Of a stretch of 64,000 nt of DNA, positions 3 to 43,627 are shown piece after piece. This stretch comes from CBDCXE01 sp965223725 [NCBI: Nitrospinota bacterium] (lineage in GTDB: Bacteria; Nitrospinota_A; UBA7883): the NCBI GenBank assembly GCA_965223725.1, contig CBDCXE010000001.1, positions 62,001 to 126,000 of the forward strand. The letters are read 5' to 3'. A program made the translations under genes and the position numbers. Each line of letters starts with the position of its first letter. The first letter of the stretch is position 1. A model generated the notes under the pieces. That model saw only the letters and a program-made list of their open reading frames with translations. It did not search any database and was not told the origin of the DNA.

Positions 3-458
3 ATGACCAACATCGCCGGTGTATACTCGGCTGGTGACATAGCGGTCCGTGATGTGGGCGGGAAAAAAATACCGTGCCGGACCTGGCTGACCGCCGCCAT
101 GCAGGGCAAAGCGGCCGGGGCGAATATGGCCGACGCAAATGCGCCCTTCGAAGAGCAAGTGTTCTTCAACGCAAGCCACGCCTATAAATCGTTATACGCT
201 GTGATCGGCCAGTTCAATCACCCGGAAGGTGAAAAAGTGGAGCATGTCACGCTCGGCTGCAAAGCGGGCGAATATGGCAAAATAATCGTGGAAAACGGCA
301 GGGTGATCGGGGGCATGCTGGTGGGGCATGTGGCGCCGGCGTGGGACATATATAATGCCATAGAAAATAATGTGGAAGTGGATATCGAAAAATTGCGCGG
401 GTTGGACACAACACGGCTGTATGAAGCGCTGACGGGCGCGCCTGCGCTGCTTTTTTAA
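3..458 (+). CDS. FAD-dependent pyridine nucleotide oxidoreductase, C-terminal part (5' end outside window)
   Basis: This is the last 151 residues of a flavoprotein whose beginning lies upstream of the window; the first Met visible is probably internal. The opening GVYSAGDIA is the C-terminal FAD-binding motif of class I/II pyridine nucleotide-disulfide oxidoreductases, in which Asp contacts the flavin ribityl chain. It is followed by the usual helix with a QGKAAGANMA-like stretch. The tail resembles the C-terminal domain of nitrite reductase-like or rubredoxin reductase-like enzymes. The stop is 18 bp before the aldehyde dehydrogenase, so the two are likely co-transcribed and may act on linked redox steps. 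The substrate cannot be read from this fragment. Confidence 0.75.
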   Translation: MTNIAGVYSAGDIAVRDVGGKKIPCRTWLTAAMQGKAAGANMADANAPFEEQVFFNASHAYKSLYAVIGQFNHPEGEKVEHVTLGCKAGEYGKIIVENGRVIGGMLVGHVAPAWDIYNAIENNVEVDIEKLRGLDTTRLYEALTGAPALLF

Positions 459-18445: not shown

Positions 18446-18457
18446 GGCGCTCTCCTG

Positions 18458-20182: not shown

Positions 20183-20184
20183 AG

Positions 20185-21354: not shown

Positions 21355-21398
21355 TTCACAACTCCTAATTATAAATATTTTTAAATATTATATTCCTG

Positions 21399-22160: not shown

Positions 22161-22315
22161 AATAACAGGCTCCTTAAAACGTCAGGTAAGATATTTCGCT
22201 AATATGCTTTAGATACGCCTTCTGTCTAAGTTTGAATATAGTACCTTTCCAGGTTAAAGGCAACCAAATTCCGGCCATATATATTTTAGTGTATATTGTA
22301 GTGAATAAACATTGC

Positions 22316-22320
22316 TGGAG
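22316..22320 (+). promoter_or_regulatory. Ribosome-binding site deciding the hypA TTG start
   Basis: TGGAG ends 7 bases before TTG 22328. Starting here gives Met-His-Glu-Met-Ser, matching the invariant HypA N-terminus in which the amino group and His2 bind nickel. A longer reading from 22232 would bury this motif behind 32 non-conserved residues. Confidence 0.65.
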
Positions 22321-22327
22321 CATTGTC

Positions 22328-23322: not shown

Positions 23323-23331
23323 TCAATAACA

Positions 23332-25623: not shown

Positions 25624-25637
25624 AGGGGTAATGTAAA

Positions 25638-25871
25638 ATGTGCGTTGCAGTTCCAATGAAGGTTGTGGAGCTTCATGAATACTCCTGTATTTGTGAAATC
25701 GATGGCGTGCGCAAATCGGTCAGCCTGATGGCGCTGGATGGGGTGGAGTTGGGCGATTATGTGATGGCCCACGCCGGGTTGGCTATCGCCAGGATAGATG
25801 AAGCCGAGGCGGAGAAAACAATACAGTTGATGCGCGATATAACAGAGAAAACCGACGATGAAGCATATTAG
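25638..25871 (+). CDS. hypC: HypC, hydrogenase assembly chaperone
   Basis: A 77-residue HypC/HupF protein. The N-terminal MCVAVPMKV provides Cys2, which binds the iron being decorated with CN and CO; this Cys motif is the family hallmark. It carries the Fe(CN)2CO unit between HypD and the large subunit. Its 3' end overlaps hypD by 14 bp, in keeping with a HypC-HypD complex made in fixed ratio. Confidence 0.96.
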   Translation: MCVAVPMKVVELHEYSCICEIDGVRKSVSLMALDGVELGDYVMAHAGLAIARIDEAEAEKTIQLMRDITEKTDDEAY

Positions 25872-26967
25872 CGAGTTCCGCGACGGCCAACTGGCGACAA
25901 AGCTCGGGGCGGAGCTTCAGCGACAAGCGGCCAGGCTCGACAGAAGCATAACCTTGATGGAAGTGTGCGGCACCCATACCATGTCGATATACCGCCACGG
26001 AATCCGGTCCACCTTCGTGCCGGATAATATCCGGCTGGTCTCCGGCCCTGGTTGTCCTGTCTGCGTCACACCCAAAAACTATGTGGACGCCGCGCTGGAG
26101 CTGGCCCGCAAAGGCAATGTTATCATCACCACGTTTGGCGATATGCTGCGGGTGCCCGGCTCCACCACATCACTACAGAAGGAACGAGCCCGCGGCGCCG
26201 ATGTGCGGGTTGTCTATTCACCCCTGGACGCGGTTGATATCGCAAAAGGCGAGCGGGAAAAAGAGGTGGTCTTCCTGGGTGTCGGGTTCGAGACCACAGC
26301 GCCAACGGTGGCCGCAGCGATCAAGACCGCCCAGCGGGATGGGGTCACCAACTTTTCCGCCCTCACATCGCTGAAGGTCATGCCGGAGCCTATGGACGCG
26401 CTGACCGATGGTGAGTTGGCGATTGATGGTTATATCTGTCCCGCCCATGTCTCCGCTATCATCGGCGAAGCTGGCTATCGGAAAATCGTTGAGAAGCGGC
26501 ATCTGCCCTGCGTCATCACAGGGTTCGAGCCGCTCGATATACTGCGCGGCATCACCATGCTGGTTGCGCAAATCGCCGATGGTCGGGCGGAAGTGGAAAA
26601 CGAATATAGCCGTGTGGTTTTGCCCGAGGGGAACGTCACGGCGCTGGAGTTGCTGGCGGATGTTTTCGAAAAGTGTGACGCGCAATGGCGCGGGCTGGGG
26701 GATATCCCGCAAAGCGGGTTGAAAATATCAAGCCGTTATGCGGAATTTGATTCGGTTGAAAAGTTCGGGATAAAATTTTCTGATGTGAAGGATAACCCCG
26801 CCTGTCTCTGCGGAGCCATATTGAAGGGCCTGAACCAGCCGGAGGATTGCGCGCTGTTCGGGACGACCTGCCGGCCCGACAATCCGATCGGGGCTTGCAT
26901 GGTCTCCTCCGAAGGGACATGCGCGGCGCAGTATCGTTATGGCAGCCGGATGACGATAGATGCCTGA
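25858..26967 (+). CDS. hypD: HypD, Fe(CN)2CO cofactor assembly protein
   Basis: A 369-residue Fe-S protein that, with HypC and HypE, builds the Fe(CN)2CO group. Recognisable motifs: MEVCGTHT near residue 37, GPGCPVCVT near 63, the GFETTAP segment near 143, and C-terminal cysteines for the [4Fe-4S] cluster (CLCGAI, GTTCRPDNPIGACMVSSEGTC). Overlaps hypC by 14 bp and hypE by 8 bp, showing tight coupling. Confidence 0.97.
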   Translation: MKHISEFRDGQLATKLGAELQRQAARLDRSITLMEVCGTHTMSIYRHGIRSTFVPDNIRLVSGPGCPVCVTPKNYVDAALELARKGNVIITTFGDMLRVPGSTTSLQKERARGADVRVVYSPLDAVDIAKGEREKEVVFLGVGFETTAPTVAAAIKTAQRDGVTNFSALTSLKVMPEPMDALTDGELAIDGYICPAHVSAIIGEAGYRKIVEKRHLPCVITGFEPLDILRGITMLVAQIADGRAEVENEYSRVVLPEGNVTALELLADVFEKCDAQWRGLGDIPQSGLKISSRYAEFDSVEKFGIKFSDVKDNPACLCGAILKGLNQPEDCALFGTTCRPDNPIGACMVSSEGTCAAQYRYGSRMTIDA

Positions 26968-27976
26968 GAAACTGGTTCTGCTGGCCCACGGTTCCGGCGG
27001 AGAGTTGACAAGGAAGCTGATAGAAGAAATTATCGTCCCATCACTGCATGATGGAAACGAAGCGCCAGACCTGGAGGACGCCGCGCTGATCGACCCGCCA
27101 TCGGGCAAACTTTTCTTCACCACAGACAGTTATGTGATCGATCCATTCATTTTTCCCGGTGGCGACATAGGGTCGCTGGCGGTACATGGAACGGTGAACG
27201 ACCTTGCCATGCGCGGGGCCATGCCGGTGGCGCTCAGCGTAGGGCTGATCCTGGAGGAGGGCCTGCCTGTCGATGATCTGAAAACTGTCATGCGATCGAT
27301 GGGCGACGCGGCGAAATCGGCCGGTGTAAAAATCGTCTGCGGTGATACCAAGGTGGCGCCCAAAGGATTTGCGGACAAGATTTTTATAAACACAGCGGGC
27401 GTTGGTGTGGCTGATGGCCAGCTTGATATAAACTCGCGCTCGGCCAAACCGGGCGATGTTGTGATTGTAAATGGAACCATCGGCGACCATGGCGCGGCGG
27501 TGATGCTGGCCCGGGAGGAGCTCGATTTCTCCGCGCCTGTACAGAGCGATTCAGCGGCATTGCATAAAATCGTCCAGGATCTGATCGATAACGAAATAGA
27601 GATGCACACCATGCGTGACCCGACCCGTGGTGGGCTGGCCACCGCCATAGTCGAGATTGCAGAAAGTTCACAGGTCTCGATCAAGCTGGATGAACGGCTG
27701 GTTCCCATATCGAATCCTGTGGCGGCGGTTTGCGAAATTCTGGGGCTCGACCCGATGTACGTTGCCAACGAAGGGAAGATGATAGTCATCGTACCGGAAA
27801 GGGATGCTGATAAGGCAGTGTCGATAATGAAAACGCACAAACAAGGGAAAGAAGCTGCCATCATAGGAGCGGTGACCGATGGACAGCCGGGGGGAAAGGT
27901 GGCCATCCAGTCATCCGTCGGCGGCTCGCGTATTGTCACAGCCTTGGAGGGGGAGCTGCTCCCCAGGATCTGCTAG
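26960..27976 (+). CDS. hypE: HypE, carbamoyl dehydratase for hydrogenase maturation
   Basis: A 338-residue PurM-like ATPase. It accepts carbamoyl from HypF on its C-terminal cysteine and dehydrates it to thiocyanate; the C-terminal PRIC-stop with that Cys is intact. The N-terminal half has HGSGGELTRKLI and the ATP-binding FTTDSYVIDPFIFPGGDIG region. Final gene of the hyp operon. Its TAG stop shares CTAG with the stop of the convergent cysteine desulfurase gene. Confidence 0.97.
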   Translation: MPEKLVLLAHGSGGELTRKLIEEIIVPSLHDGNEAPDLEDAALIDPPSGKLFFTTDSYVIDPFIFPGGDIGSLAVHGTVNDLAMRGAMPVALSVGLILEEGLPVDDLKTVMRSMGDAAKSAGVKIVCGDTKVAPKGFADKIFINTAGVGVADGQLDINSRSAKPGDVVIVNGTIGDHGAAVMLAREELDFSAPVQSDSAALHKIVQDLIDNEIEMHTMRDPTRGGLATAIVEIAESSQVSIKLDERLVPISNPVAAVCEILGLDPMYVANEGKMIVIVPERDADKAVSIMKTHKQGKEAAIIGAVTDGQPGGKVAIQSSVGGSRIVTALEGELLPRIC

Positions 27977-32177: not shown

Positions 32178-33281
32178 CTACAGTTCAGGATTCGGGAACG
32201 GGGCGGTTGGCCGAATCCCTTTATAATCAGCGTCTTTGTCTTCCATATCGATCGGAACAATTTTTGTGAATGTGTCCAGCATATCATCACGGCTGTTATT
32301 AAACCGCTCCGCCGTGGCGGATAGATGTTGCATATACTGGCCAAGGTCCACACGGCTATCAAACGTTTTGAAAAACCCTTCCAGTTGTTTGCCGAGAAAC
32401 TCCCGGTCGTTGTCGTTCAGTTTGCCAAACTTCACATTTACACCTAGCTGATCCTTGCTTATCTGGCCCCTGATAAACGCCGTGCCCGCTGTCATGCCAG
32501 AGCAGATATAGTAACCAGCCGGATTGGGCACATCATAGATATTGACGATGATGCCGATGGTCCCTTGCGCATATTCCATAAAATAGTCGCGCACTCGCCT
32601 GCCGAACATGATAATTGGAGGCTCACGATCAATAACCTTCTTTTTAAACTCTTGCAATATATTTTTGAAGCCGATCTTGTTCAGGCGCGCTTTACGGAGC
32701 TGATATTTGTATAACAGGTCTTGAGCAATTTCCTTGTCGCTCATATCCTCAAACTCGGAGTAATCAATCTCTCTCCATATATGCGGAATCCCCGCGCCTG
32801 CCCGCAATCCACAACGGTTGCCCCCCTGCCCCGCCACACGAAAAATCCCGGATGGACAATAGCTGGCAAAAAGGTCATCCACTGACCCGCCGATATTCAT
32901 CTCCGTCGGGTTGGATGTGTTGCCGATGGCTACCTGCGCGTCACCCGGGCAAATAATGTTATTCGGAAACAGGGTTGGATATGTGTTCAGCTCTATCTGA
33001 TCGATAAACGCTGCCGAATGGTTGCCCATAATGCCGTATACATCTATTTTCGCTGGCCCTTGCACACCGGTGCCGATCAGATCCTGACCGCAGACATTGA
33101 TCAGTTTGAACTCGGTCACACCTTTGGCGCGCGCCGCTTTCATCATGCGGTTCAACGTCTCGCCGGTCATCTCCATCACACCACAATCGATGGTGACCTT
33201 GGTATGCCCCTTTACGGCGCTCCCGACTGATTCAACCGGTGTTGTATTGTTTAATACCAGTTCTTTCAATTTTTCTCCCAC
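32178..33281 (-). CDS. Glutamate synthase GXGXG-domain subunit (archaeal-type split enzyme)
   Basis: A 367-residue protein corresponding to the C-terminal GXGXG beta-helix domain of GltB, made as a separate subunit. The helix region includes GVQGPAKIDVYGIMGNHS, AGQGGNRCGLRAGAG and NIYDVPNPAGYYICSGMTAG, giving repeated short Gly-rich turns. In glutamate synthase this domain is structural and supports the ammonia tunnel and FMN domain. Last gene of a four-gene minus-strand operon; the FMN subunit ends 5 bp upstream. About 130 residues after the helix (GRRVRDYFMEYAQ onward) extend beyond the minimal domain. Confidence 0.85.
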   Translation of the reverse strand: MGEKLKELVLNNTTPVESVGSAVKGHTKVTIDCGVMEMTGETLNRMMKAARAKGVTEFKLINVCGQDLIGTGVQGPAKIDVYGIMGNHSAAFIDQIELNTYPTLFPNNIICPGDAQVAIGNTSNPTEMNIGGSVDDLFASYCPSGIFRVAGQGGNRCGLRAGAGIPHIWREIDYSEFEDMSDKEIAQDLLYKYQLRKARLNKIGFKNILQEFKKKVIDREPPIIMFGRRVRDYFMEYAQGTIGIIVNIYDVPNPAGYYICSGMTAGTAFIRGQISKDQLGVNVKFGKLNDNDREFLGKQLEGFFKTFDSRVDLGQYMQHLSATAERFNNSRDDMLDTFTKIVPIDMEDKDADYKGIRPTAPFPNPEL

Positions 33282-33286
33282 AATTA

Positions 33287-34864
33287 CTAGAAAGGTTCGC
33301 GTCCGAATGCTTCATACAGGGCAGGGTTTTTGCCATGGTACCGGAACTTGCGCGATCCCACCACATCCTCATGGGTTGTGAATCCAAGCCCAGCCGCCAG
33401 CCCTTCCATACCACGCTTCCAGGAGATCATCATGTTGACTATCCGCTGGCATCCCTCCTCCGGGTCTATCCGGTGGCCGTACGGCCTTGCGGTGATACCC
33501 CAGGAACATTGCCCGGTGTGGCACCGCCTGCACATGGTGCACCCCAGCGGTATCAGATGGCGCGTGCCTGTGCCTATCAGGTCATACCCCACCATCAGCC
33601 CCAGCAGAGCCATCTTCGGGTTCAGAAAAGCGCCCTCCCCTATGAGGGAAACCGATTCGCGCAGACCCTCCCGCACCAGCGCGTCGTGGGCCAGTTTGCC
33701 AATATAGAGGGTGTTCAGTCCGCGGTTTTGCAGGTCGGACATGGACGCCGCGCCGGTGCCGCCACCGCCGCCACGCAATGTAATATAGTCAAACCCGGCC
33801 CTGGCCAGGGCAACGACGATATGGTCCACGTTCCAGATGGTGCCGTATATATCGGCGCCCACCAGCTTGTCCGGACCCAGCGCCGCGCGCAGGCTGGCGA
33901 TCCTCATCCGCAGCTCCTCGATGGAATATTGCAGATGCTGAGGGTTAGGCGAGTTCACATCCCGGTACGGTTCGATACACCGGATCAATGCGATCTCCCA
34001 ATCGTTTTTAGGCGCTGGCAGTTTGCCGCCCTTACCTTTTTTAGCGTCCTGCCCATATTTCATGGAGACGCCCATAAACTGGTTCAAATCAACCCATGGC
34101 CCGAAACCACCAGTGCCAAACTGCAATATACAATGCTTGTATGCGGATGCAAAATCGGGATGCAAATAGCCTTCCCCCACAAAAAACGGACGGCCAAGCT
34201 CTATGGAGGCCATCAACCTGGCAAGAAACGCTTCGTGGCTGTTAGATCCATAGCTCATATGCGAATCGAAAACAGGGGTGCCCACTTTCACACGCCGGCC
34301 CTCCCGTTTGCCCAGATAGCAGTTGCTCAGCTGACCCGCAAACTCGTTTCTGTTGTCCCTGGGTGGGTTCAAAATTATCGAGGCGTCGATATGAAAATCT
34401 TCATAGTCTGGCGGCTGATTATACTCCATCATGGAGCTGGTCATGGTCTTCCCTTCCGATCGCTTCAGGTTATGAAAGATCGTGGTGGCGCCATGGTCCG
34501 GTGTGCCGATCACATGGAAGTTTGGGTTGTTGTCCACCGTAATAGCGTTGGTGGGGCACATGGCCACGCACCGTTTGCAGTTACAGCAATCGATATCCAT
34601 TATCCGAAGCTCCTGGCTCAGATATTCACCCTCATCCGCACTCTCCGGTAGCCGCCGGTTCTTCTCATCAAAAAATATATCCCGCCCTTCGAACACACCG
34701 GTCTTCCGTTCCGGCACGGTCAGGTTATGGGTGCACTCGATCACACAGGTGTAACACCACACGCATTTATCCGGGTCCACCGTAACCTTGTATGGGCCGC
34801 CCATCTGGCCGATGCCAACCTTGGTGGGCCGGTCGTATACTACTTTTCTATCTAATAGTTTCAT
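33287..34864 (-). CDS. Glutamate synthase FMN-domain subunit with N-terminal ferredoxin clusters
   Basis: A 525-residue protein equal to the central FMN/synthase domain of GltB, preceded by a 2[4Fe-4S] ferredoxin domain (CVWCYTCVIEC near residue 34 and CCNCKRCVAMCP near 95). The synthase part shows AGFDYITLRGGGGGTGA near 360 (phosphate/FMN binding, catalytic loop) and the Fe-S cysteines GCTMCRRCHTGQC near 450. It condenses 2-oxoglutarate with ammonia and reduces the imine with FMNH2. The N-terminal clusters suggest it can take electrons from ferredoxin or from the FAD subunit. Third gene of the operon. Confidence 0.9.
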   Translation of the reverse strand: MKLLDRKVVYDRPTKVGIGQMGGPYKVTVDPDKCVWCYTCVIECTHNLTVPERKTGVFEGRDIFFDEKNRRLPESADEGEYLSQELRIMDIDCCNCKRCVAMCPTNAITVDNNPNFHVIGTPDHGATTIFHNLKRSEGKTMTSSMMEYNQPPDYEDFHIDASIILNPPRDNRNEFAGQLSNCYLGKREGRRVKVGTPVFDSHMSYGSNSHEAFLARLMASIELGRPFFVGEGYLHPDFASAYKHCILQFGTGGFGPWVDLNQFMGVSMKYGQDAKKGKGGKLPAPKNDWEIALIRCIEPYRDVNSPNPQHLQYSIEELRMRIASLRAALGPDKLVGADIYGTIWNVDHIVVALARAGFDYITLRGGGGGTGAASMSDLQNRGLNTLYIGKLAHDALVREGLRESVSLIGEGAFLNPKMALLGLMVGYDLIGTGTRHLIPLGCTMCRRCHTGQCSWGITARPYGHRIDPEEGCQRIVNMMISWKRGMEGLAAGLGFTTHEDVVGSRKFRYHGKNPALYEAFGREPF

Positions 34865-34884
34865 CGAGTAATCTCGCTATATAT

Positions 34885-36150
34885 CTATATTTGCGCCTGC
34901 TCTTCTTCGCTTACAGGTGTCAGTGTCTCGCCAAACGCATCGGAGACTTCCCCATTTTCACCCAGCTCAAACGCCACCAGCTTGCCCGGCTCGCAGTTGA
35001 CCGATCGAAAATCGCATTCGCTGATAAAACCGGTCTGGTATATCACCTTCTCTTCCGATCCCCAGATCACCGTACCCCCATCATGCGATCGGCCCATCCA
35101 CAGTTGCCTTAGCCCGTCCCGGTCCCTGCCTGCGATCACTTTATTGTTCAGGATTGCGATAAACGACGATGGCCCGCTCATTTTATATCTGGCCAGCACC
35201 GGGTTGCTGAGCAGCTTTGTATATTTTTCCCTTTCGGCGGGCTCCATGGTCCCCATCTCTTTCGGAAACTTCTGGCACATCACCCACTCCACCTGCTGGT
35301 AGTTCAGCTGCTTTTTGAACAAAAGGTCGTCCACCTCCAGCAACATCGCCTCGGAGTCTGTCCCCACCATCCTGTCCACATCGGCCGCCTCCAGCCCTTG
35401 CCTGTTTGATGGGGATGAAGAGAGGTCACCATTATGAACAATGGCGGAATTCATGAAGCTGATCGGATGTGAACCCCACCAGATTCCAGAATCCACGATG
35501 CTGGTCGGCCATCGCATATGGACCATCATGGCGGTCAGCGGGCTGTTCTGATACTGATACAGGTCGAACGCCTCTATCGTATTCTCCAGCTCCATTGCCG
35601 TCAGGAACGTGCCGACATTCTTGCCGGAGGAAAAAATCCTGGAGTCGCCCATGTACCGCTCGTTATAATCTTCCACAATCGCGCGGGTATAGTCATGCTC
35701 CACGCTAGTATGTTTCCGGAGCAGCATCTCATCAATAGTCGGGGGCGACAGAAAATATCTGCGCATCTCCGGCAGGTCATATTTTCTGTACGACTCCGGC
35801 GTCACCAGCGGCTCCATCTCGCCAAAATGACGCATGCCGAGCTGCCCCTCGGTGAACATCGGCTCCAGATCCTTGGCGATCTTCCGATTTCGGTAAAGCA
35901 CATGGAACGCATAATAGTCGCTGCGCCTCGGGTATATGCCACGCAGCAGCACACCAGCGCCGAAGGTGCCCCGCGCCTGCATGGTCCCGGCCGCTTCCAG
36001 GCCGGCGTGCAGGTTGATCTGCCCAATGGCCGCATATAATCCGCATGCGCCCGGCGATATTCCAGCCGACCCGCAATCCATTCGACTCAGGCCTTTGGAG
36101 CTCTCATCGTCAGAGACCACCGGCCAGTTGATCGTTCCGTCATTTTCCAT
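34885..36150 (-). CDS. Class II glutamine amidotransferase subunit of split glutamate synthase
   Basis: A 421-residue Ntn-type amidotransferase that would release ammonia from glutamine. The probable nucleophile is the Cys of GACGLYAAIGQINLHAG near residue 37, not at the extreme N-terminus, so about 36 residues must be removed or the start lies downstream. SFMNSAIVHNGDLSS near 230 and VGTDSEAM near 265 match the glutamine-pocket region (NGD and D of class II enzymes). The ATG overlaps the previous stop (TAATG). Second gene of the operon, consistent with delivery of ammonia to the FMN subunit. Confidence 0.87.
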   Translation of the reverse strand: MENDGTINWPVVSDDESSKGLSRMDCGSAGISPGACGLYAAIGQINLHAGLEAAGTMQARGTFGAGVLLRGIYPRRSDYYAFHVLYRNRKIAKDLEPMFTEGQLGMRHFGEMEPLVTPESYRKYDLPEMRRYFLSPPTIDEMLLRKHTSVEHDYTRAIVEDYNERYMGDSRIFSSGKNVGTFLTAMELENTIEAFDLYQYQNSPLTAMMVHMRWPTSIVDSGIWWGSHPISFMNSAIVHNGDLSSSPSNRQGLEAADVDRMVGTDSEAMLLEVDDLLFKKQLNYQQVEWVMCQKFPKEMGTMEPAEREKYTKLLSNPVLARYKMSGPSSFIAILNNKVIAGRDRDGLRQLWMGRSHDGGTVIWGSEEKVIYQTGFISECDFRSVNCEPGKLVAFELGENGEVSDAFGETLTPVSEEEQAQI

Positions 36151-37730
36151 TATTGATTATCCTCAACTACCATCGGGCGGACAACATACCGTGGGCAATC
36201 TTCCCAGCAGCGACCGCACGTGTCACAATCATCCTTTCGCTCAAACAGCGGGCCTTCCGGGTTCCAATCCACCATCAGCTTGTTGATTCCATCCTTTGAA
36301 CTGCACGCCTTGAAACACCAGTCACAGTTGGAGTCCAGGCCGCCTATACATAGCCCACAACGAAAACATCGATCCGCCTCCACCACCGCTTCTTCCAGGC
36401 TGGCGACCCGCTCCACCAGGTTAAAGTTTTTGCGGCGCTTCGCCGGTTTTTCCCGATACGGTATCAGACGCATACCCGGTGTGAAATAGCGGTCGATATT
36501 CATCTTCTCATAGGTGACCTCCTCCCGGAGTGAGCTAAATAACTGTTTGCCCACAAGGGCGTTGCTCACTTCGTCGGCCACCATTTTGCCGCTGGCGACT
36601 GCATGGATCACGGTACCCACCGACTCTGGATCGACATCGCCGGCCATATATACTTTATCCCTCGCGGCGATTTCCCAGGCGTGCGGCTCCTGCCCTATGG
36701 CCATGATAAGGGCGTCGGCTTTAAAATCCACAATCTCATCTGTGCTTACCGGGGTTTGCCGGCCGGAATAATCTGGCTCGCCCAGCTCCATTTTTCTTAT
36801 TTTCAGAGTGGTTCCGTCGTATGATTCCGGTGAAAGGAGAAATTTAAACTCCACACCCTCCGCTTTGGCGTCCTCCACTTCATAATCGTGGGCGGGCATC
36901 ATCTCTTCTGTTCTGCGATACATGATGCTGACCGATTTGGCGCCCAGCCGGACCGCGCTCCTGCACGCGTCCATGGCCACATTGCCGCCACCGATCACCA
37001 CAACTTCCTTGCCTTTAAACTCGCTCTTCTTGTATGCGCCGGAGTTCACGCCTTTCAGGAACTCCAGTCCATTCAACGCGTTCTTTTCGCCATCGATACC
37101 AGCGGTTCTGCCCTTGCCTGCGCCGGTGGATATGATGACAGAGTCACACTCACCCGATTCGAGGAAGCTGACTATATCGTCATGGGTAAGTTTTCTGCCT
37201 TTGTTTATCTTTACTCCGGAGGCTTCTATCAGCCCTATCTCCCTGTCCAGGGTCTCCCTTTCGAGCCGATAGGTGGGGATGCCGTAACGCAACATGCCAC
37301 CCGGCTTCTCTTCAGCCTCGAATATCTCCACATTGAAGCCAGCAATGTTCAAAAACCAGCCAGCGGTCAGGCCGCATGGACCGGAGCCAACTATATATAC
37401 GGTTTTGCCGTTCGGTTCCGCAATTTCGGGCCGCCAATCCGGGTCGAACCCATAATCGCCTATGACAGCTTCCAGCTTCTGGATAGATATCGGCTTGTCG
37501 AAGGAGCCCCTGTTACAAGGCGTTTCGCAGAAACCATAACAGACCCTTCCCAGCACAGCGCGCAGCGGATGGCTCTCCATCATGATCCGCCAGGCCTGGC
37601 CCACATCGTTTGTGGCAAGCGCGTGCAGAGCAGCCGCTATATTTGTGTATGCCGGGCATCCGACCAGCCCGCCGCATGGCGCTGTCCGGTTTTCCCAGAC
37701 TGGCGTCACGTATCCGGTTTTATCGGACAT
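36150..37730 (-). CDS. gltD: NADPH-dependent glutamate synthase small-chain-like FAD oxidoreductase with extra Fe-S clusters
   Basis: A 526-residue GltD-type flavoprotein. The N-terminal Fe-S region has CxxxxC motifs (APCGGLVGCPAY; CYGFCETPC near 65). FAD binding: VGSGPCGLTAG near residue 112; NADPH binding: VIGGGNVAMDACR near 247; the second FAD motif GDVDPESVGTVIHA near 370. After residue 440 come further ferredoxin cysteines, CFRCGLC, CDWCFKAC and CDTCGRCWEDCP. It supplies reducing equivalents to the split GltB-like subunits encoded downstream. First gene of the operon, preceded by a hairpin-rich 140-bp leader. Confidence 0.9.
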   Translation of the reverse strand: MSDKTGYVTPVWENRTAPCGGLVGCPAYTNIAAALHALATNDVGQAWRIMMESHPLRAVLGRVCYGFCETPCNRGSFDKPISIQKLEAVIGDYGFDPDWRPEIAEPNGKTVYIVGSGPCGLTAGWFLNIAGFNVEIFEAEEKPGGMLRYGIPTYRLERETLDREIGLIEASGVKINKGRKLTHDDIVSFLESGECDSVIISTGAGKGRTAGIDGEKNALNGLEFLKGVNSGAYKKSEFKGKEVVVIGGGNVAMDACRSAVRLGAKSVSIMYRRTEEMMPAHDYEVEDAKAEGVEFKFLLSPESYDGTTLKIRKMELGEPDYSGRQTPVSTDEIVDFKADALIMAIGQEPHAWEIAARDKVYMAGDVDPESVGTVIHAVASGKMVADEVSNALVGKQLFSSLREEVTYEKMNIDRYFTPGMRLIPYREKPAKRRKNFNLVERVASLEEAVVEADRCFRCGLCIGGLDSNCDWCFKACSSKDGINKLMVDWNPEGPLFERKDDCDTCGRCWEDCPRYVVRPMVVEDNQ

Positions 37731-37740
37731 ATCTATTAAT

Positions 37741-37870
37741 TCCCCTTTACAACAACTAGTTAAATTTCCGCGGTCCGACCAAAGTTACCGCAAGATAGCT
37801 ACAAAGACAACGCTCCATTTCAGGAGCGAGCATTCGACTCTTTACGAGTGGGGCGCTTTTTAAAGCGTAT
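37741..37870 (-). promoter_or_regulatory. Hairpin-rich region between the DUF1858 gene and gltD
   Basis: On the minus strand it contains, in order: AAGCGT/ACGCTT (37879-37863, spanning the upstream stop codon); CGCTTT/AAAGCG (37867-37854), which shares bases with the first and so excludes it; ACTC/GAGT (37849-37837); CGCTCC-TGAAAT-GGAGCG (37828-37811), followed by TTGTCTTTG; and GCGGT/ACCGC (37791-37770). The fourth hairpin with its T-rich tail is a candidate terminator of the upstream gene. The mutually exclusive pair looks like an attenuation device. No match to the glnA-type glutamine riboswitch consensus was recognised. Confidence 0.45.
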
Positions 37871-38839
37871 TCAACGCTTCAAGGTAGTTTCAATGATACC
37901 GTTGATTTCGTCAAGTATTTTTTGAGGCGGCATACCGTGCATTCCGGCGGTTTGCTCAATATTTTCAGTGGCTTGCCCTGGGCAGGTGAAGCATGCGCTG
38001 CCGTAGTGTTTTTCGAACACAGCGGTGGTTTCCGGGTAGATTTCCAGCAATGGCCCGATTTTGGTTTTGAAGTGGGCGAGCTCTCCACGTTTGATTATCT
38101 CACCGTCGGTGGAGGCGCCGGAGCCGTTCGAAGGAGTTGCTGGTTGTTCGTTGGACGCATCGTCGGTGGTGACGATTTTCTTTCCTTCCAGCCTGGCGAT
38201 CAACGGGAACAGCTCCTTGCCCGCTTTTTTGGCCGCCATTTCCAGGGTAACTATCTGCGCCACAGAATCCCTGACCGCAGAATTGGCCAGGTCGCCCAAT
38301 CCTTCCTCGGTCATGGTTTCTTCCAGATGAGGATACTTCTCCAGTATCTCGGCGATTTTCATGCCGGGGGCAACCTTAACATCCGGCAAAGGAGCGGCAG
38401 GCGTTGGCGCCGCGGAGGCTGGTTCCTCGACAATTTCCGGCTCATCCTTCAGCACACTTAGCATGTTGACAATAAAGATCAATATGGAAACGCCTTCGAT
38501 AAGCCCGAATAGGCCGAACAGCATCCTCGGTGCGCCGCTGGTGTAGAAAGCGCCGAACCCGTACAGCACGATCAGCCCGACAAGCCCGGCGTTGGCCAGC
38601 CAGTAATGGACCGGCACCATCGATGGATATGGCAATTGCCTTGCATTGAACCGTGGCAAAATGTGGTAAGCCACGCCATAGATGAACATCGCCATGAACC
38701 CGATGAGCATCAGGTGAACATGAATGAACCTGATTTCCGCCATGGCATGATCCGCGAAGGACATGTGTATGCCCATCAGCATACCGAGCCCAAGGTATAT
38801 CAGTGATACTCTTATAAACTTCTTTCCATATTTATCCAT
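37871..38839 (-). CDS. CcoN-like four-helix membrane protein fused to two DUF1858-type domains
   Basis: A 322-residue fusion. Residues 1-135 contain four transmembrane helices with histidines in the pattern HMSFADH, IHVHLMLIGF and YHILPRF, resembling the helices of cbb3-type oxidase subunit I or small relatives of it. After an Ala/Pro-rich linker come two DUF1858-like domains: one at about 155-215 (PGMKIAEILEKYPHLEET), lacking cysteines, and a C-terminal one at about 260-322 with CFTC (ACFTCPGQATENIEQTA), as in hybrid-cluster-protein-associated proteins. It may bind haem and use a dithiol for redox or nitrogen-oxide sensing. Divergent from the Tat redox cluster. Confidence 0.75.
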   Translation of the reverse strand: MDKYGKKFIRVSLIYLGLGMLMGIHMSFADHAMAEIRFIHVHLMLIGFMAMFIYGVAYHILPRFNARQLPYPSMVPVHYWLANAGLVGLIVLYGFGAFYTSGAPRMLFGLFGLIEGVSILIFIVNMLSVLKDEPEIVEEPASAAPTPAAPLPDVKVAPGMKIAEILEKYPHLEETMTEEGLGDLANSAVRDSVAQIVTLEMAAKKAGKELFPLIARLEGKKIVTTDDASNEQPATPSNGSGASTDGEIIKRGELAHFKTKIGPLLEIYPETTAVFEKHYGSACFTCPGQATENIEQTAGMHGMPPQKILDEINGIIETTLKR

Positions 38840-39011: not shown

Positions 39012-40205
39012 ATGAAACGACGTGATTTCATCAAAACGACAAGCATCGGCGCTGTGGCTGGCCTGGGCGGTATCAGGATAGCCAGCCAGGAAGCGAACGC
39101 CAGCGAGCCTGTCTCGATAAAAAAATATGGAACCCTGGGCCGTACCGGTCTGAAAATCAGCGATATCTCATTCGGTGGTGGCGCGCTGAACTCACCCACG
39201 TTGATGGCGAAGGCGGTGGAGATGGGTGTGAACTATTTCGACACCGCCCCCGACTATGGCCCCTCGGAGAAGACCATCGGGAAATATCTGAAAAAATCTG
39301 GCGGGCGCGACAAGGTGCATATCGCCACCAAGTTTTGCGATAAAGAGTTCTATCCGGGCCATCTGGACGCCGACGCGCCGGAGAGCAGATATATCGAGGT
39401 GGTTGAAGAAAGCCTGGGCCGGATGAACACCGACTATGTGGATCTGGTATTCGTGCATGCCATGGGTGAAGAGAGCCGCGAGTATGAAAGCCGGCTGTTA
39501 TCGGAAAATATGCTCAATGCGTTTGCAAAGCTGAAAAAAGCTGGCAAGGCGCGGTTCCTGGCGGTCTCGTCCCACGGCCCTGTCCGGATGGAAGAGTTAA
39601 TGATGAAAGCTGTCAAGTCGGGTCATTACGATGTGATCATGCCAGCGCACAATTTCATGAAGTTCCCGAAGGCGCCGGATGTGATTGAAGAAGCCGGAAA
39701 GCGCAACATAGGTGTGGTCGCCATGAAGACCCTGGCCGGCGCCAAGGAGATGAAGCTCGACACAAAAGGCGACGACTTCGCCCATGCAGCGTTCAAATGG
39801 GTTCTGCAGAATCCGAACATTGCCGGGCTGGTGGTGACGATCAAAAACTTTCAAAGCTTGTCGCACTATGTCAAGGCGTCCGGCAAAACTTTTACCAAAG
39901 AATCGCAATACACCCTTGATCAGTACAAAACGGCCTACTCCACCGAATATTGCCGCACCGGTTGCGGCGACTGCCTCGGCGCCTGTCCGGAAGGGCTGAA
40001 CATCGCGGGCGTGTTACGACAGCAAATGTATTTCACCGATTATCACGAAGAGAAAAAGGCGATGACCGGATATGCAAGGATGTCGCCCAACGCTGATGTG
40101 TGCGCCAGTTGTTCATCCGCCCCGTGCGAGTCGGCCTGCGGTTACAATCTGCCGGTCAAGGCGCTGTTGACACGGGCAAAGGAAAGTTTAACCTTCCGGG
40201 TGTAA
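39012..40205 (+). CDS. Tat-exported aldo/keto reductase with C-terminal ferredoxin-type cysteines
   Basis: A 397-residue protein. A twin-arginine signal MKRRDFIKT with a hydrophobic stretch to about residue 30 sends it to the periplasm. The aldo/keto reductase barrel starts at YGTLGRTGLKISDI; the catalytic tetrad is visible as Asp and Tyr in YFDTAPDYG, Lys in IATKF and His in VFVHAM. The C-terminal 90 residues carry two cysteine groups, CRTGCGDCLGACPEG near 317 and CASCSSAPCESACGYN near 360, likely two Fe-S clusters. An exported member cannot rely on cytoplasmic NADPH, so the cofactor is an open point. First gene of a four-gene cluster; the stop overlaps the next start (TAATG). Confidence 0.88.
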   Translation: MKRRDFIKTTSIGAVAGLGGIRIASQEANASEPVSIKKYGTLGRTGLKISDISFGGGALNSPTLMAKAVEMGVNYFDTAPDYGPSEKTIGKYLKKSGGRDKVHIATKFCDKEFYPGHLDADAPESRYIEVVEESLGRMNTDYVDLVFVHAMGEESREYESRLLSENMLNAFAKLKKAGKARFLAVSSHGPVRMEELMMKAVKSGHYDVIMPAHNFMKFPKAPDVIEEAGKRNIGVVAMKTLAGAKEMKLDTKGDDFAHAAFKWVLQNPNIAGLVVTIKNFQSLSHYVKASGKTFTKESQYTLDQYKTAYSTEYCRTGCGDCLGACPEGLNIAGVLRQQMYFTDYHEEKKAMTGYARMSPNADVCASCSSAPCESACGYNLPVKALLTRAKESLTFRV

Positions 40206-41125
40206 TGATCAGGGCTGGGCTGGTGGCGCTGTTGCCTGTAATAGCGCTGGTGATCTATATCGACGGGCAAAACTTCGACCCGGAAAAGCTCGATTTTTCG
40301 AAATCCGCCGGGGGTGATCTGGAACAGTTTTTCCCCGAAAGTGTGAAAGGACTGCAGAGGGAACGGACCGTCCGTGTGTTCAACAAGGATAACCTTTTTG
40401 AATATGTAAACGGCCATGCGGAGTTTTTCATCTCATCCGGGTTCAAGGCGGTGGCGGTGGCTGGCTATTACGAAAAAGAAGGCGACCCGAACCAGCCCGA
40501 TTTCATGGTGGACATATACGATATGGGCTCCACTGATAACGCTTTCGGCGTGCTAAGCGCAGAGAGCGATGGGACGGAGCCTTTGCAAGTCGGCTTCATG
40601 GGATACCAGACAAAGAGCAACCTGCTGTTTATCAAAGGTCCATATTACGTAAAGATCACATCCTTTAATCCGGGCAACAAAAATAGTATCGCGCTGGCCA
40701 ACAATGTCTCCGATACAATGGGTGATGTAGATACTGCCATATCGCAGTTCCGGCTGTTTCCATCGGATGGCGCCATAAAATCTGGCCGCAGTTTTGTTCG
40801 GCAAGATTATATGGGGCTCGATTTTATGACGGACGTTTATGAGCAGGAGTACAAGCGAACCGAAGGTGAGTTCACCGCGTTTCTGGTCTCGCCAAAGGAT
40901 AAGCTGGCCAAGCTGGTGGCATTCTATAAAGATAATGGTACCGAGGTCATGCCGGTGAAGATAGAGGGCAATGAAGGATATATAATAAATGATGAGTATG
41001 AGGGGGCGTTGGGTGTTGTGCAGGTTGGCGCAAACGTTATCGGCGTCCGCGGAATCGAGGAGAGCGGGAAATTGCGGGCGTTCCTGAAAGAAGCGATTGA
41101 GGTGAACGATGACCTCGAGGAATAA
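40205..41125 (+). CDS. DUF6599-like exported protein
   Basis: Start placed at ATG 40205, overlapping the upstream stop; a longer reading from 40100 would run 106 bp into the aldo/keto reductase gene. The 306-residue product has an N-terminal membrane segment (LVALLPVIALVIYI) that is a signal anchor, then a soluble domain. FPESVKGL, FNKDNLFEYVNGHAEFFISSGF and DIYDMGSTDNAFGVL match the pattern I associate with the DUF6599 family, for which no biochemical function is known. It is coupled on both sides (1-bp and 17-bp overlaps) to exported redox proteins, so it probably works with them outside the cytoplasm. Confidence 0.72.
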   Translation: MIRAGLVALLPVIALVIYIDGQNFDPEKLDFSKSAGGDLEQFFPESVKGLQRERTVRVFNKDNLFEYVNGHAEFFISSGFKAVAVAGYYEKEGDPNQPDFMVDIYDMGSTDNAFGVLSAESDGTEPLQVGFMGYQTKSNLLFIKGPYYVKITSFNPGNKNSIALANNVSDTMGDVDTAISQFRLFPSDGAIKSGRSFVRQDYMGLDFMTDVYEQEYKRTEGEFTAFLVSPKDKLAKLVAFYKDNGTEVMPVKIEGNEGYIINDEYEGALGVVQVGANVIGVRGIEESGKLRAFLKEAIEVNDDLEE

Positions 41126-42101
41126 TAAAGTCGATAACAAACTGCTGAACAGGCGTCGTTTTATAAAAACAGTCGCCCAGGGTTGCGCCGGGGTGGTCGG
41201 TGTGTCAGCCGTCACATATTTGGCATATGGGGAGAAGCCGGTCTATCACGCGCCGGAGAAAATATATAAGCTGAACGATTTTCGGGTCGATACATCCGGC
41301 CTACCACGGTTAATAATCACCCACGGCGATGACCCTTTCATGATGGTGAAAGCGGCCACGGAAAAGCTGGGCGGGATCGACAGGTTCATCAAACCGGGCG
41401 ACCGTGTGGTGATCAAGCCGAACGTGGCGTGGGACCGTCTGCCGGAGCAGGCGGCAAACACCAACCCGGATGTGGTTCTGGCAGTGGCGAAGCTGGTGAT
41501 GGGCGCCAAGCCTGCCAGCGTCACGGTGACCGATGTATCGCTGAACGATCCATATCGATCCTTCGCCCGGTCCGGGATAGAGAAAGCCGCAGGCGAGGCT
41601 GGCGCGAAGCTATGGATACCCGGTGTTAACGATTTTCGTCAGGCGGACCTGAACGGCTCGCTTCTGAAAGTGTGGCCGGTCAGTCGCGCGTTTCTGGAGG
41701 CGGACAAGGTTATCAACATCCCGGTGGTCAAACATCACAGCCTTAGCCGGGCCACGCTGGCGCAGAAAAACTGGTACGGCATACTGGGTGGCCGGCGCAA
41801 CCAGCTTCATCAGGATATCCATACATCGATCGCCGATCTGGCCAGCGCTGTCCGCCCTACCCTGACGGTGATGGACGCGACCCGCGTGTTGATGAAAAAC
41901 GGGCCCACCGGCGGTTCGTTGAGCGACGTAAAGGTTTTCAACACCATTGTCGTCGGGCTGGATGAGGTGGCCATCGACTCCTATTCGCTGGGCCTGCTGG
42001 GCGCAAAGCCGGATGATGTGGGCTATATGAAGCTGTCGCAGGAGCGCGGACTGGGCGAGCCGGACTGGAAGTCTATCCGTTACGAAGAGCTGAACGTCTG
42101 A
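41109..42101 (+). CDS. Tat-exported DUF362 protein
   Basis: A 330-residue protein with twin-arginine signal NRRRFIKTVAQG at residues 14-25 followed by a hydrophobic run. The mature part is a DUF362 domain: GDRVVIKPNVAWDR near residue 98, VTVTDVSLND near 138, VINIPVVKHHSLSRATLAQKNWYG near 200 and GVDEVAIDSYSLGLLG-like text near 285. DUF362 proteins lack an established reaction and often sit with ferredoxins. There are no CxxC clusters in this copy, so the Fe-S function is likely in the neighbours. Overlaps the DUF6599 gene by 17 bp. Confidence 0.85.
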   Translation: MTSRNNKVDNKLLNRRRFIKTVAQGCAGVVGVSAVTYLAYGEKPVYHAPEKIYKLNDFRVDTSGLPRLIITHGDDPFMMVKAATEKLGGIDRFIKPGDRVVIKPNVAWDRLPEQAANTNPDVVLAVAKLVMGAKPASVTVTDVSLNDPYRSFARSGIEKAAGEAGAKLWIPGVNDFRQADLNGSLLKVWPVSRAFLEADKVINIPVVKHHSLSRATLAQKNWYGILGGRRNQLHQDIHTSIADLASAVRPTLTVMDATRVLMKNGPTGGSLSDVKVFNTIVVGLDEVAIDSYSLGLLGAKPDDVGYMKLSQERGLGEPDWKSIRYEELNV

Positions 42102-42103
42102 CC

Positions 42104-43627
42104 GTGAATGATCCATTGAACAAACGCCTCACGCTGAAAACCCTCCGTCGGATCTGGTCGATATTTTTCGTCCTGCTGTTTCTGCTCTTGATCTACATCA
42201 CTGACTTTCGACACATGAAAGGTTACGAGGTCGCGCTGTTTCTGGAGACCGATCCGCTGGTCTGGCTGACCGGGTTGATGAGCGGCTGGACCGTATACAA
42301 AGGGATGGCGCTGGCGCTGTTGATTATCATCCCGACCCTGTTCCTCGGCCGGTTTTTCTGTTCATGGATCTGCCCGTTGGGGATCATGAACCAGTGGGCC
42401 AGCAAAGTACTGCATGCCAAAAAACCGACAGACGAATACGAAATAAATGAGTATCGTGAAGTATATCGCTTCAAATATTATCTGTTGGCCGTGTTGTTGA
42501 TCCTCGCTCTGTTCGGGTCTTTGCAGACAGGGTTGTTCGACCCTATCGCTCTGGTTCATCGGACATTTATCACTTCCGTTTTCCCTGCCGTCGATTATTT
42601 TCTTAACCTTGCTTATCTTCGCCCCCCGGTGTTCCTGGGCGGCGTGTTGATCAGCTTTCTGTTCCTGGCGATCATTCTGGCCAACCGGTTTATCACCCGG
42701 TTATGGTGCCGGTTGCTCTGCCCGCTTGGCGCGCTGCTCGGTCTGTTATCGCTCGGCTCGATCATGCGGATCCGGCGTAATGTAGAAAAATGCACAGATT
42801 GCCAAAAATGCCTCAGCTCCTGCCAGGGCGCCTCCGACCCGCAGTCGGAGCTGCGCCCGTCGGAATGTCTGGTCTGCATGAACTGTATATCGGACTGCCC
42901 GGAGGACGCGCTGCATTATGGTTTGCCGGAGAGTTTGTCATCGGCGCATAAACCGCTCGATATCAACCGCCGACGGCTGGTGGAGACCGGCCTTGCCGGC
43001 CTGATAGCGTTCCCGATGCTCAAAAGCTCCCTCACCGGAGAGACCACCGATCAGGCGCTGGTGATCCGTCCACCCGGCAGCCTGCCAGAGCCAGATTTTC
43101 TGCGGCGATGCATCAAATGCTCCGAGTGTATGCGGGTCTGCCCGACCAACGTGTTGCAACCGGCCCTGCTGGAGTCGGGGTTCGAAGGGCTCTGGACGCC
43201 GATCCTGGTGAACAAGATAGGGTATTGCGAGCATCAATGCACCCTGTGCGGCCAGGTCTGCCCCACCGGCGCCATAGAGCAGATCTCCATCATCGACAAG
43301 ATCGGCTCCGCGACGGTTAAGCCACTGGTGATCGGCACCGCTTTTTTTGATCGTGGCAGATGCCTTCCGTGGGCCATGGGTGTGCAGTGCATCGTATGCG
43401 AGGAGGTCTGCCCTACATCGCCAAAAGCTATCTGGTTCCACGAATCGACCATCACTGCAAGGGACGGATCACGCAAAAGGCTGAAGTATCCTTATCTCGA
43501 CCCGAAGCTATGCATCGGATGTGGGATATGTGAAAATAAATGTCCGGTGCGCGATCTGGCCGCCATCCGGGTCACCTCCGTGGGCGAGACCCGATCGAAA
43601 ACCAACAAGATGATCCTGAAAAGCTGA
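42104..43627 (+). CDS. Membrane-bound polyferredoxin (NapH/CcoG-like) with many Fe-S motifs
   Basis: A 507-residue protein starting at GTG 42104, 2 bp after the DUF362 stop. The N-terminal 215 residues hold about five transmembrane helices with two CxxxCP motifs on loops (CSWICPLG near residue 88, CRLLCPLG near 204), as in NapH/YccM/CcoG. Then follow CTDCQKCLSSC, CLVCMNCISDCP, CIKCSECMRVCP, CEHQCTLCGQVCP, CIVCEEVCP and CIGCGICENKCP: enough for about six [4Fe-4S] clusters. It likely transfers electrons from menaquinol across the membrane to the periplasmic partners encoded upstream. A TGA at 43625-43627 ends the cluster. Confidence 0.87.
   Translation: MNDPLNKRLTLKTLRRIWSIFFVLLFLLLIYITDFRHMKGYEVALFLETDPLVWLTGLMSGWTVYKGMALALLIIIPTLFLGRFFCSWICPLGIMNQWASKVLHAKKPTDEYEINEYREVYRFKYYLLAVLLILALFGSLQTGLFDPIALVHRTFITSVFPAVDYFLNLAYLRPPVFLGGVLISFLFLAIILANRFITRLWCRLLCPLGALLGLLSLGSIMRIRRNVEKCTDCQKCLSSCQGASDPQSELRPSECLVCMNCISDCPEDALHYGLPESLSSAHKPLDINRRRLVETGLAGLIAFPMLKSSLTGETTDQALVIRPPGSLPEPDFLRRCIKCSECMRVCPTNVLQPALLESGFEGLWTPILVNKIGYCEHQCTLCGQVCPTGAIEQISIIDKIGSATVKPLVIGTAFFDRGRCLPWAMGVQCIVCEEVCPTSPKAIWFHESTITARDGSRKRLKYPYLDPKLCIGCGICENKCPVRDLAAIRVTSVGETRSKTNKMILKS

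What the first reader, a model, noticed from the sequence alone, without database searches (positions are those of the whole stretch)
39012..43627. Four-gene exported redox cluster: Tat-AKR with Fe-S, DUF6599, Tat-DUF362, membrane polyferredoxin
The genes overlap or nearly touch, two products carry Tat signals, one is anchored, and one is a membrane protein with about six [4Fe-4S] motifs. An aldo/keto reductase outside the cytoplasm has no NADPH, so electrons may come from the polyferredoxin through its own C-terminal clusters. DUF6599 and DUF362 have no known reactions. This is the best candidate here for an undescribed system, perhaps a periplasmic reductase drawing on quinol.
Basis: partly seen in the sequence, partly recalled or inferred. 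Interest (0 to 1): 0.8.

Follow-up and report, generated by a model that had tools for sequence, protein, structure and literature searches.

The report
Exported LarA-fold protein with polyferredoxin
Four bacterial genes that travel together appear to encode a redox machine on the outer face of the cell membrane, and one part has the fold of nickel-pincer racemases and may be one of the long-sought other users of that rare nickel cofactor.

Summary
The four genes are real and form one unit. AKR, DUF6599, Tat-DUF362 and a NapH-NapG fusion polyferredoxin (PFD) lie on one strand with overlapping or 2-nt junctions. All four recur together in 12 of 83 collected loci, in two gene orders. The core is DUF362+PFD (72 of 83); AKR and DUF6599 are optional. 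The PFD belongs to a Sec/Tat dual-targeted type described in 2017, so quinone-linked electron exchange with the periplasm is plausible.

The surprise is DUF362. Its predicted structure matches the cofactor domain of nickel-pincer (NPN) racemases (Z 14.8-17.5; next fold 5.2). Its invariant His210 and Lys220 align with LarA His174 and the cofactor-tethering Lys184, though each profile score is weak. Complete NPN biosynthesis genes sit beside the cluster in two genomes without detected LarA. In Nitrospirota, LarC is in 38 of 39 genomes with this DUF362 versus 69 of 109 others.

Against: 9 of 80 PFD genomes lack LarB, LarC and LarE; LarA Arg75 and His108 are not conserved; some NPN-making genomes have neither LarA nor DUF362. 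Best reading: an exported, quinone-coupled NPN (or NPN-like) redox system, confidence 0.5. Substrate and direction are unknown.

The parts
39012..40205 (+). Tat-exported aldo/keto reductase with two C-terminal four-Cys motifs; catalytic tetrad kept, last third of the AKR domain not recognisable
   Evidence: Pfam AKR 2.1e-33, profile 24-194 of 291; tetrad invariant in 17 of 17; RRx[FLIVM] in 24 of 25 homologues with uncut start
40205..41125 (+). DUF6599: membrane-anchored protein of two sandwich domains
   Evidence: PF20244 2.7e-34; model pLDDT 91.8; VIA Z 12.5 for 37-175 and 11.5 for 178-306
41109..42101 (+). Tat-exported DUF362 with the fold of the LarA N-domain; invariant K208, H210, K220, H234
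   Evidence: PF04015 1.6e-45; model pLDDT 88.4; VIA Z 14.8-17.5 to 12 LarA-family entries; residue counts in 69 sequences
42104..43627 (+). PFD: NapH-NapG fusion polyferredoxin, internal twin arginine, six [4Fe-4S] motifs
   Evidence: TIGR02163 NapH 1.5e-27 for 13-272 and PRK09476 NapG 1.9e-28 for 286-493, both below their curated cut-offs; motif counts in 120 homologues

Best explanation
A membrane-bound, periplasm-facing redox module. The PFD exchanges electrons between the quinone pool and its periplasmic [4Fe-4S] clusters, as NapGH does. DUF362 is the conserved partner: a LarA N-domain homologue that most likely carries the nickel-pincer nucleotide (NPN), or a close relative, on Lys220, with His234 as nickel ligand and His210 as acid/base. 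The cofactor would be made by LarB, LarE and LarC and loaded in the cytoplasm before folded export by Tat. In LarA the hydride returns to the same carbon; here the PFD would take up or supply the two electrons, giving net oxidation or reduction of an external hydroxy/oxo compound. DUF6599 is an anchored, probably non-catalytic partner. The Fe-S AKR is an optional second catalytic subunit. Shown: co-inheritance, Tat motifs, cluster motifs, predicted fold match, lar-gene linkage. Inferred: cofactor, nickel ligation, electron path. Unknown: substrate and direction.
For: DUF362 beside PFD in 72 of 83 loci and all four families in 12 of 83, in two orders; in a second set anchored on DUF362, PFD within 6 kb in 35 of 39. 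DUF362 model matches LarA-family structures at Z 14.8-17.5, next fold 5.2, Foldseek top 19 rows all LarA family. H210/K220 fall on LarA H174/K184 in hhalign and in HMMER both ways (7 of 9 DUF362 sequences listed at E<=1 place H210 on H174, and where the alignment runs on, K on K; 5 of 8 LarA sequences in the reverse direction). H210, K220, H234 are 69 of 69. Three weak Pfam Lar_N hits lie inside DUF362 genes of another type. L024 holds larC-larE-larB-DUF6599-DUF362-PFD-AKR, and L006 AKR-DUF6599-DUF362-PFD-larC then larE-larB; the lar genes exceed NCBIfam cut-offs; neither genome has a Lar_N match. LarC in 38 of 39 Nitrospirota genomes with this DUF362 against 69 of 109 others, Fisher 8e-6, kinship not corrected. 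24 of 80 PFD genomes have LarB, LarC and LarE but no LarA match. PFD targeting and NapGH likeness: PMC5449189.
Against: 9 of 80 PFD genomes show none of LarB, LarC, LarE; 4 of the 9 also lack LarA, and the 7 of the 9 with rows in the DUF362 alignment keep H210, K220, H234. Among 14 controls B. ihuae has DUF362 without LarB, LarC or LarE, and M. jannaschii (LarB, C, E) and C. glutamicum (LarB, C) have neither LarA nor DUF362. In Nitrospirota 26 of 94 LarC+ LarA- genomes have no DUF362 at 1e-20. LarA R75 and H108 have no counterpart at the aligned positions and the LarA C-terminal domain is absent. Profile scores are weak (E 0.03-0.9) and hhalign in -glob mode gave another alignment. None of the 39 further loci has a nearby lar gene; pooling them weakens the linkage statistic from P 0.002 to 0.019. 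The H234-H200 match is by spacing only.
Confidence: 0.5

Rival explanations
1. A quinone-linked periplasmic oxidoreductase in which DUF362 has the LarA fold but binds something else (another nucleotide, a metal or the substrate); LarB, LarC and LarE serve other proteins in these genomes.
For: 9 of 80 PFD genomes and B. ihuae have no LarB, LarC or LarE; R75 and H108 are not conserved; the window protein has a single Cys, so a cofactor other than Fe-S is needed if it is redox-active.
Against: Two loci carry complete larBCE beside the cluster without LarA in the genome; Nitrospirota association; invariant His/Lys register.
Confidence: 0.3
2. One reading: the Fe-S AKR is the main enzyme, a periplasmic carbonyl reductase fed from quinol through the PFD; DUF362 and DUF6599 are assembly factors.
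For: AKR-PFD pairs without DUF362 exist in Bacteroidota (L001, L003); tetrad invariant; NADPH third not recognisable.
Against: AKR is in only 16 of 83 loci while DUF362 is in 72, and in 7 of the 39 further loci; several AKRs lack the second Cys motif.
Confidence: 0.1
3. A periplasmic reductive repair or maturation device, analogous to MsrPQ: the PFD supplies electrons that keep an exported metal site or damaged component reduced.
For: No recurring catabolic or transport neighbour was seen: apart from the four families and their antisense ORFs, no gene cluster reached more than 6 of 83 loci; six window flanks are not conserved.
Against: Nothing specific to repair was found; an AKR subunit suggests a carbonyl/alcohol reaction.
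Confidence: 0.1

Closest known systems
Polytopic polyferredoxin, MLMS-1 Q1NSB0 type (Tooke 2017, PMC5449189; abstract, passages and section 9 read)
   Same: NapH-NapG fusion with a twin arginine before the last membrane helix; clusters on both sides of the membrane
   Different: That paper predicts seven clusters where I count six motifs plus two CxxxCP pairs; in what I read no gene partner or function is given
LarA family, nickel-pincer lactate/malate racemases
   Same: Fold of the cofactor domain; His-x9-Lys; probably cofactor biosynthesis genes
   Different: Exported; no C-terminal domain; R75 and H108 absent; tied to an electron-transfer protein
NapGH quinol dehydrogenase
   Same: Homologous electron-input module
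   Different: Fused; no NapA seen in the window ORFs; different partner
Fe-S aldo/keto reductases (COG1453-like; name recalled)
   Same: AKR domain plus C-terminal Cys motifs
   Different: Tat-exported; last third of the AKR domain not recognisable in the DUF362-linked group
MsrPQ (as described in the Tooke 2017 discussion)
   Same: Membrane protein passing respiratory-chain electrons to a Tat-exported enzyme
   Different: Haem and molybdenum instead of Fe-S and a LarA-fold protein; no homology claimed

Membership tests
LarA (NPN racemase) family | Fold of the N-terminal cofactor domain | tested here: met
   VIA Z 14.8-17.5 over 201-209 residues, next fold 5.2; predicted model only
LarA (NPN racemase) family | Lys184 tether and His174 | tested here: inconclusive
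   K220 and H210 in register and 69 of 69, but single scores are E 0.03 or worse
LarA (NPN racemase) family | His200 nickel ligand | tested here: inconclusive
   H234 is 69 of 69 and 14 residues after K220 (16 in LarA); not reached by the profile alignments
LarA (NPN racemase) family | Arg75 and His108 | tested here: not met
   No Arg or His at the positions aligned by hhalign
LarA (NPN racemase) family | C-terminal domain (LarA beyond about 270) | tested here: not met
   330 residues; matched range 72..300 to 35..269 of 5huq
LarA (NPN racemase) family | Pfam Lar_N match over cut-off | tested here: not met
   Window protein matches only PF04015. It is therefore not filed as a LarA
LarA (NPN racemase) family | NPN bound; 2-hydroxyacid isomerisation | not testable with these tools
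   Needs protein
Dual Sec/Tat polyferredoxin (Tooke 2017) | NapH-NapG fusion with twin arginine before the last membrane helix and Fe-S motifs on both halves | tested here: met
   NCBIfam NapH 13-272 and NapG 286-493; RR 289-290 in 114 and 119 of 120; six motifs
NapGH | Score over the curated NapG/NapH cut-offs | tested here: not met
   99.3 bits against 269 and 96.8 against 213
NADPH-dependent aldo/keto reductase | Catalytic Asp/Tyr/Lys/His | tested here: met
   D77, Y82, K107, H149 invariant in 17 of 17; identification as tetrad recalled
NADPH-dependent aldo/keto reductase | Complete domain including the NADPH phosphate/adenosine part | tested here: not met
   Match ends at 194-203 of 291 in the window and 7 of 7 others tested from DUF362 loci; two Bacteroidota AKRs match to 289 and 286. 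Non-recognition is not proof of loss
DUF6599 (PF20244) | Pfam gathering score | tested here: met
   118.8 bits against 27
DUF362 (PF04015) | Pfam gathering score | tested here: met
   156 bits against 24

The most novel reading that the evidence does not exclude
Tat-exported DUF362 proteins are a missing class of non-LarA nickel-pincer proteins: the cofactor is loaded in the cytoplasm, exported inside the folded protein and wired through a NapGH-type polyferredoxin to the quinone pool. It would be an NPN enzyme doing net redox chemistry outside the cytoplasm, and would explain part of the genomes that have larB, larC and larE but no larA, possibly cyanobacteria too: the control Synechococcus elongatus has LarB, LarC, LarE and DUF362 and no LarA.
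Probability: 0.45. Interest if true: 0.95.

Novelty: categorically new. Interest (0 to 1): 0.85.

Why it matters
NPN is, as far as I know, a cofactor shown only in LarA-type isomerases. PMC11796402 (passage read) says about 15% of more than 1,000 genomes have larB, larE and larC but no larA, and infers unknown NPN-binding proteins. This finding names a concrete candidate family, gives two loci that carry the cofactor genes beside it (L024, L006), and gives residues to mutate. It also gives a partner to a polyferredoxin family whose targeting, but (in what I read) not function, was described in 2017. The electron-input half is of a known kind (NapGH); I know of no system in which an exported LarA-fold protein is joined to it. 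If the NPN reading fails, a widespread exported redox unit without a description in the papers searched remains.

Tried and rejected
DUF6599 by sequence: a one-sequence scan of genome contigs gave no relative, tblastn of plasmids none, a PDB profile search only poor scores. Its Foldseek hits are weak; VIA shows two sandwich domains of a common type, read as non-enzymatic. A fifth recurring gene: in the neighbour clustering of 83 loci one group of 16 loci turned out to be antisense ORFs of the four genes (20 of 20 members); no other group outside the four families exceeded 6 loci. Lar genes in the window: none found in its 64 kb with profiles built from L006 and L024. DUF362 relatives in the PDB by sequence: none for the single sequence, four poor matches, none LarA, for the profile. 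More linked cases in Gammaproteobacteria: 4 of 369 genomes had this DUF362 at 1e-60; the three new ones were fetched, one on a 5.3 kb contig, none with lar genes. Papers: DUF6599 0 hits; 'DUF362' 9 papers, passages read in 4, of which 2 matched only longer numbers such as DUF3623, 1 uses DUF362 as an outgroup and 1 mentions nested Fe-S motifs, the other 5 seen as listing only; 'nickel-pincer' with 'DUF362' 1 paper, the outgroup one; Npun_F2552 0; AKR with twin-arginine, iron-sulfur and quinol 0; AKR/iron-sulfur cluster/COG1453 2, unrelated by listing; led to the polyferredoxin paper; two searches listed LarA and other papers. PMC7583248, PMC11796402 and PMC12611868: passages only. The library lacks most subscription papers and bioRxiv. 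The window's organism was not determined. The LarA count of 49 of 80 includes weak matches that may be DUF362 genes, so it is an upper bound.
Full report
OBSERVATION. The four genes exist as described. The AKR stop overlaps the DUF6599 ATG, DUF362 starts 17 nt before the DUF6599 end, and the PFD starts 2 nt after the DUF362 stop. The PFD has six [4Fe-4S] motifs (Cys 230-240, 255-265, 336-346, 375-386, 420-436, 470-480; each Cys in 119-120 of 120 homologues), two CxxxCP pairs (118-119 of 120) and an internal RR at 289-290 (114 and 119 of 120).

DO THEY BELONG TOGETHER? With three Bacteroidota loci from plasmid records, 83 loci were searched with profiles grown from the window proteins (recount in 133). 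PFD is in 83 by construction, DUF362 in 72, DUF6599 in 24, AKR in 16. All four are in 12: AKR-6599-362-PFD in L004, L005, L006, L010, L047 and L076, and 6599-362-PFD-AKR in L011, L013, L019, L020, L021 and L024. Record titles name Nitrospirae/Thermodesulfovibrionia, Gammaproteobacteria/Chromatiales, Magnetococcales, Verrucomicrobia, Gemmatimonadetes, Myxococcales/Polyangiaceae, Planctomycetota and one unnamed bacterium. Nine loci showed only the PFD; in 5 of these the PFD touches the start of the locus. A second set anchored on DUF362 (36 Nitrospirota regions and 3 from Gammaproteobacteria) has a PFD within 6 kb in 35 of 39, AKR in 7 and DUF6599 in 6. So DUF362-PFD is the core and the other two are optional. 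By genome, DUF6599 is in 34 of 37 and 21 of 43 PFD genomes (55 of 80) and in 0 of 14 controls. Some unlinked copies sit near other DUF362 genes (L101-L104, L108) or an AKR (L096). Six window flanking genes had no match in 119 loci, which marks the unit as these four genes.

EXPORT AND ELECTRON INPUT. Tat motifs (RRx[FLIVM]) occur in 105 of 114 DUF362 and 24 of 25 AKR sequences with an uncut start. The PFD is of the family that Tooke and colleagues reported in 2017 (PMC5449189; abstract, passages and section 9 read): a fusion of NapH and NapG whose last membrane helix follows a twin arginine. Fusions of its membrane part to reporters were exported in E. coli in their tests. They describe NapGH as a quinol dehydrogenase. 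Quinone-linked exchange with the periplasm is inferred from this homology.

THE AKR. The tetrad D77, Y82, K107, H149 (recalled) is invariant in 17 of 17. The Pfam AKR match stops at profile position 194-203 of 291 in the window and in 7 of 7 other AKRs tested from DUF362 loci, while two of the three Bacteroidota AKRs that sit beside a PFD but no DUF362 were tested and match to 289 and 286. The unmatched third is where, from recall, NADPH phosphate and adenosine are bound. The two C-terminal Cys motifs are complete in the window group, but the second is lost in several other lineages, so Fe-S feeding of the AKR is not universal.

DUF362 HAS A LARA FOLD. A model from 69 sequences (mean pLDDT 88.4; residues 1-42 under 50) matches lactate and malate racemases of the LarA family: VIA Z 14.8 to 17.5 for 12 entries over 201-209 residues, next fold 5.2; Foldseek best E 1.2e-5, first 19 rows LarA family. 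The matched part of LarA (35-269) holds the NPN site. DUF362 and DUF2088 are in one Pfam clan (PMC11770544, passages). In LarA, NPN is tethered to a lysine by a thioamide, a histidine completes the nickel plane, and His108 and His174 act as acid and base (PMC12611868 and PMC11770544, passages); numbering was carried over with the alignment to 5huq. hhalign (and three of four settings; the global setting gave something else) puts H210 on H174 and K220 on K184. HMMER with a LarA profile against DUF362 gives the H210-H174 register in 7 of 9 sequences listed at E<=1, and in reverse in 5 of 8; several alignments run on to place Lys on Lys. Each score is weak (E 0.03 or worse), but the register agrees with the structural ranges (72..300 to 35..269 of 5huq). 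H234, 14 residues after K220, is the likely partner of H200 (16 after K184), by spacing only. H210, K220 and H234 are in 69 of 69. Three weak Pfam Lar_N matches in Nitrospirota (G115, G097, G122; profile 144-190; one over the cut-off) fall inside DUF362 genes of another type. R75 and H108 have no counterpart. The window protein has one Cys, at residue 26.

LINK TO NICKEL-PINCER BIOSYNTHESIS. In L024 (Chromatiales MAG) the order is larC, larE, larB, DUF6599, DUF362, PFD, AKR on one strand with overlapping or short junctions. In L006 (gammaproteobacterial MAG) AKR, DUF6599, DUF362, PFD, larC are followed about 3 kb later by larE and larB. All six lar genes exceed NCBIfam equivalog cut-offs, and neither genome has a Lar_N match. 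One or two lar genes also lie near the core in L020, L045 and L051. Five of 80 loci against 0.84 expected gives Poisson P 0.002; with the 39 further loci, which have none, 5 against 1.51 gives 0.019. The linkage claim therefore rests mainly on the two complete sets. By genome, LarC is in 66, LarB in 63, LarE in 70 and LarA in at most 49 of 80 PFD genomes; 60 have all of LarBCE, and 24 of those have no LarA match. The eight of the 80 with the closest PFDs (L004-L010, L076; 60-63% identity) have LarB, LarC and LarE 8 of 8 and LarA 0 of 8. In 148 Nitrospirota genomes LarC is in 38 of 39 with this DUF362 type (one as a fragment) and 69 of 109 others (Fisher 8e-6), and in 79 of 83 with any DUF362 at 1e-20 against 28 of 65 (7e-13); kinship is not corrected. 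PMC11796402 (passage) reports about 15% of more than 1,000 genomes with larB, larE and larC but no larA, many of them cyanobacteria, and infers unknown NPN-binding proteins. Among the 14 controls Synechococcus elongatus fits: LarB, LarC, LarE and DUF362 present, LarA not found.

WHAT SPEAKS AGAINST. Nine of 80 PFD genomes show none of LarB, LarC and LarE. Five of the nine have a LarA match, which suggests assembly gaps or divergent genes, but four have neither. Seven of the nine have a row in the DUF362 alignment and all keep the three residues. Among controls B. ihuae has DUF362 without LarBCE; M. jannaschii and C. glutamicum have LarB and LarC (M. jannaschii also LarE) with neither LarA nor DUF362. 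A Parabacteroides DUF362-PFD pair (L002) keeps the His-Lys spacing; its lar genes were not looked for. In Nitrospirota 26 of 94 LarC+ LarA- genomes have no DUF362 at 1e-20. Some DUF362 may use another cofactor, or the residues may serve another end.

HOW IT MOST LIKELY WORKS. Shown: co-inheritance, Tat motifs, cluster motifs, predicted fold, lar linkage. Inferred: NPN on K220, nickel on H234, export of the loaded protein by Tat (which carries folded cofactor proteins, recalled), hydride exchange with an external hydroxy/oxo substrate, electron transfer through the periplasmic clusters, and exchange with the quinone pool through the NapH half. DUF6599 (two sandwich domains) is probably a scaffold.

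NOVELTY. The papers found hold no description of this cluster or of DUF362 as an NPN protein (five of the nine DUF362 papers seen as listing only). The library is incomplete. The parts come from known families, and the electron-input half is of a known kind; the system as a whole fits no kind I know.

Noticed in passing
L001:5818-11812; L003:5854-8782: Bacteroidota records have PFD-AKR pairs without DUF362 (two back to back, in mirrored order, in L001); the AKRs have a twin arginine followed by a Cys that looks like a lipobox, and a full AKR domain.
   Followed up: partly
L101-L104, L108: DUF6599 copies outside the PFD cluster lie near other, more distant DUF362 genes, so the DUF6599-DUF362 link is wider than this system.
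   Followed up: partly
L160, L161, L163, L165, L167, L065: Two DUF362 genes in tandem or close together beside one PFD (5 of 36 fetched Nitrospirota regions, and L065).
   Followed up: no
genomes G060, G062, G063, G069, G076 (loci L063, L065, L066, L072, L079): LarA matches (several copies in G062 and G069) without LarB, LarC or LarE at the thresholds used: assembly gaps, divergent genes or another source of the cofactor.
   Followed up: no
control genome Synechococcus elongatus: LarB, LarC and LarE without LarA, but with a DUF362 that also matches the Npun_F2552 family: a candidate NPN protein for cyanobacteria.
   Followed up: partly
L169, L170: Two gammaproteobacterial genomes carry a Tat-DUF362 close to this type with no PFD within about 9 kb.
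   Followed up: no
window 32178-38839: Divergent minus-strand genes of a glutamate synthase-like set (Glu_synthase with Fe-S, pyridine nucleotide oxidoreductase with Fer4_20) and a DUF1858 protein with a short COX1-like region; no match near the cluster in the 119 loci for the two genes tested.
   Followed up: partly
window 17753-27976: A [NiFe] hydrogenase (large and small subunit confirmed by Pfam) with cytochrome b-like and Hyp-like genes (named from reading the ORFs); ordinary, but shows that the organism handles nickel.
   Followed up: partly
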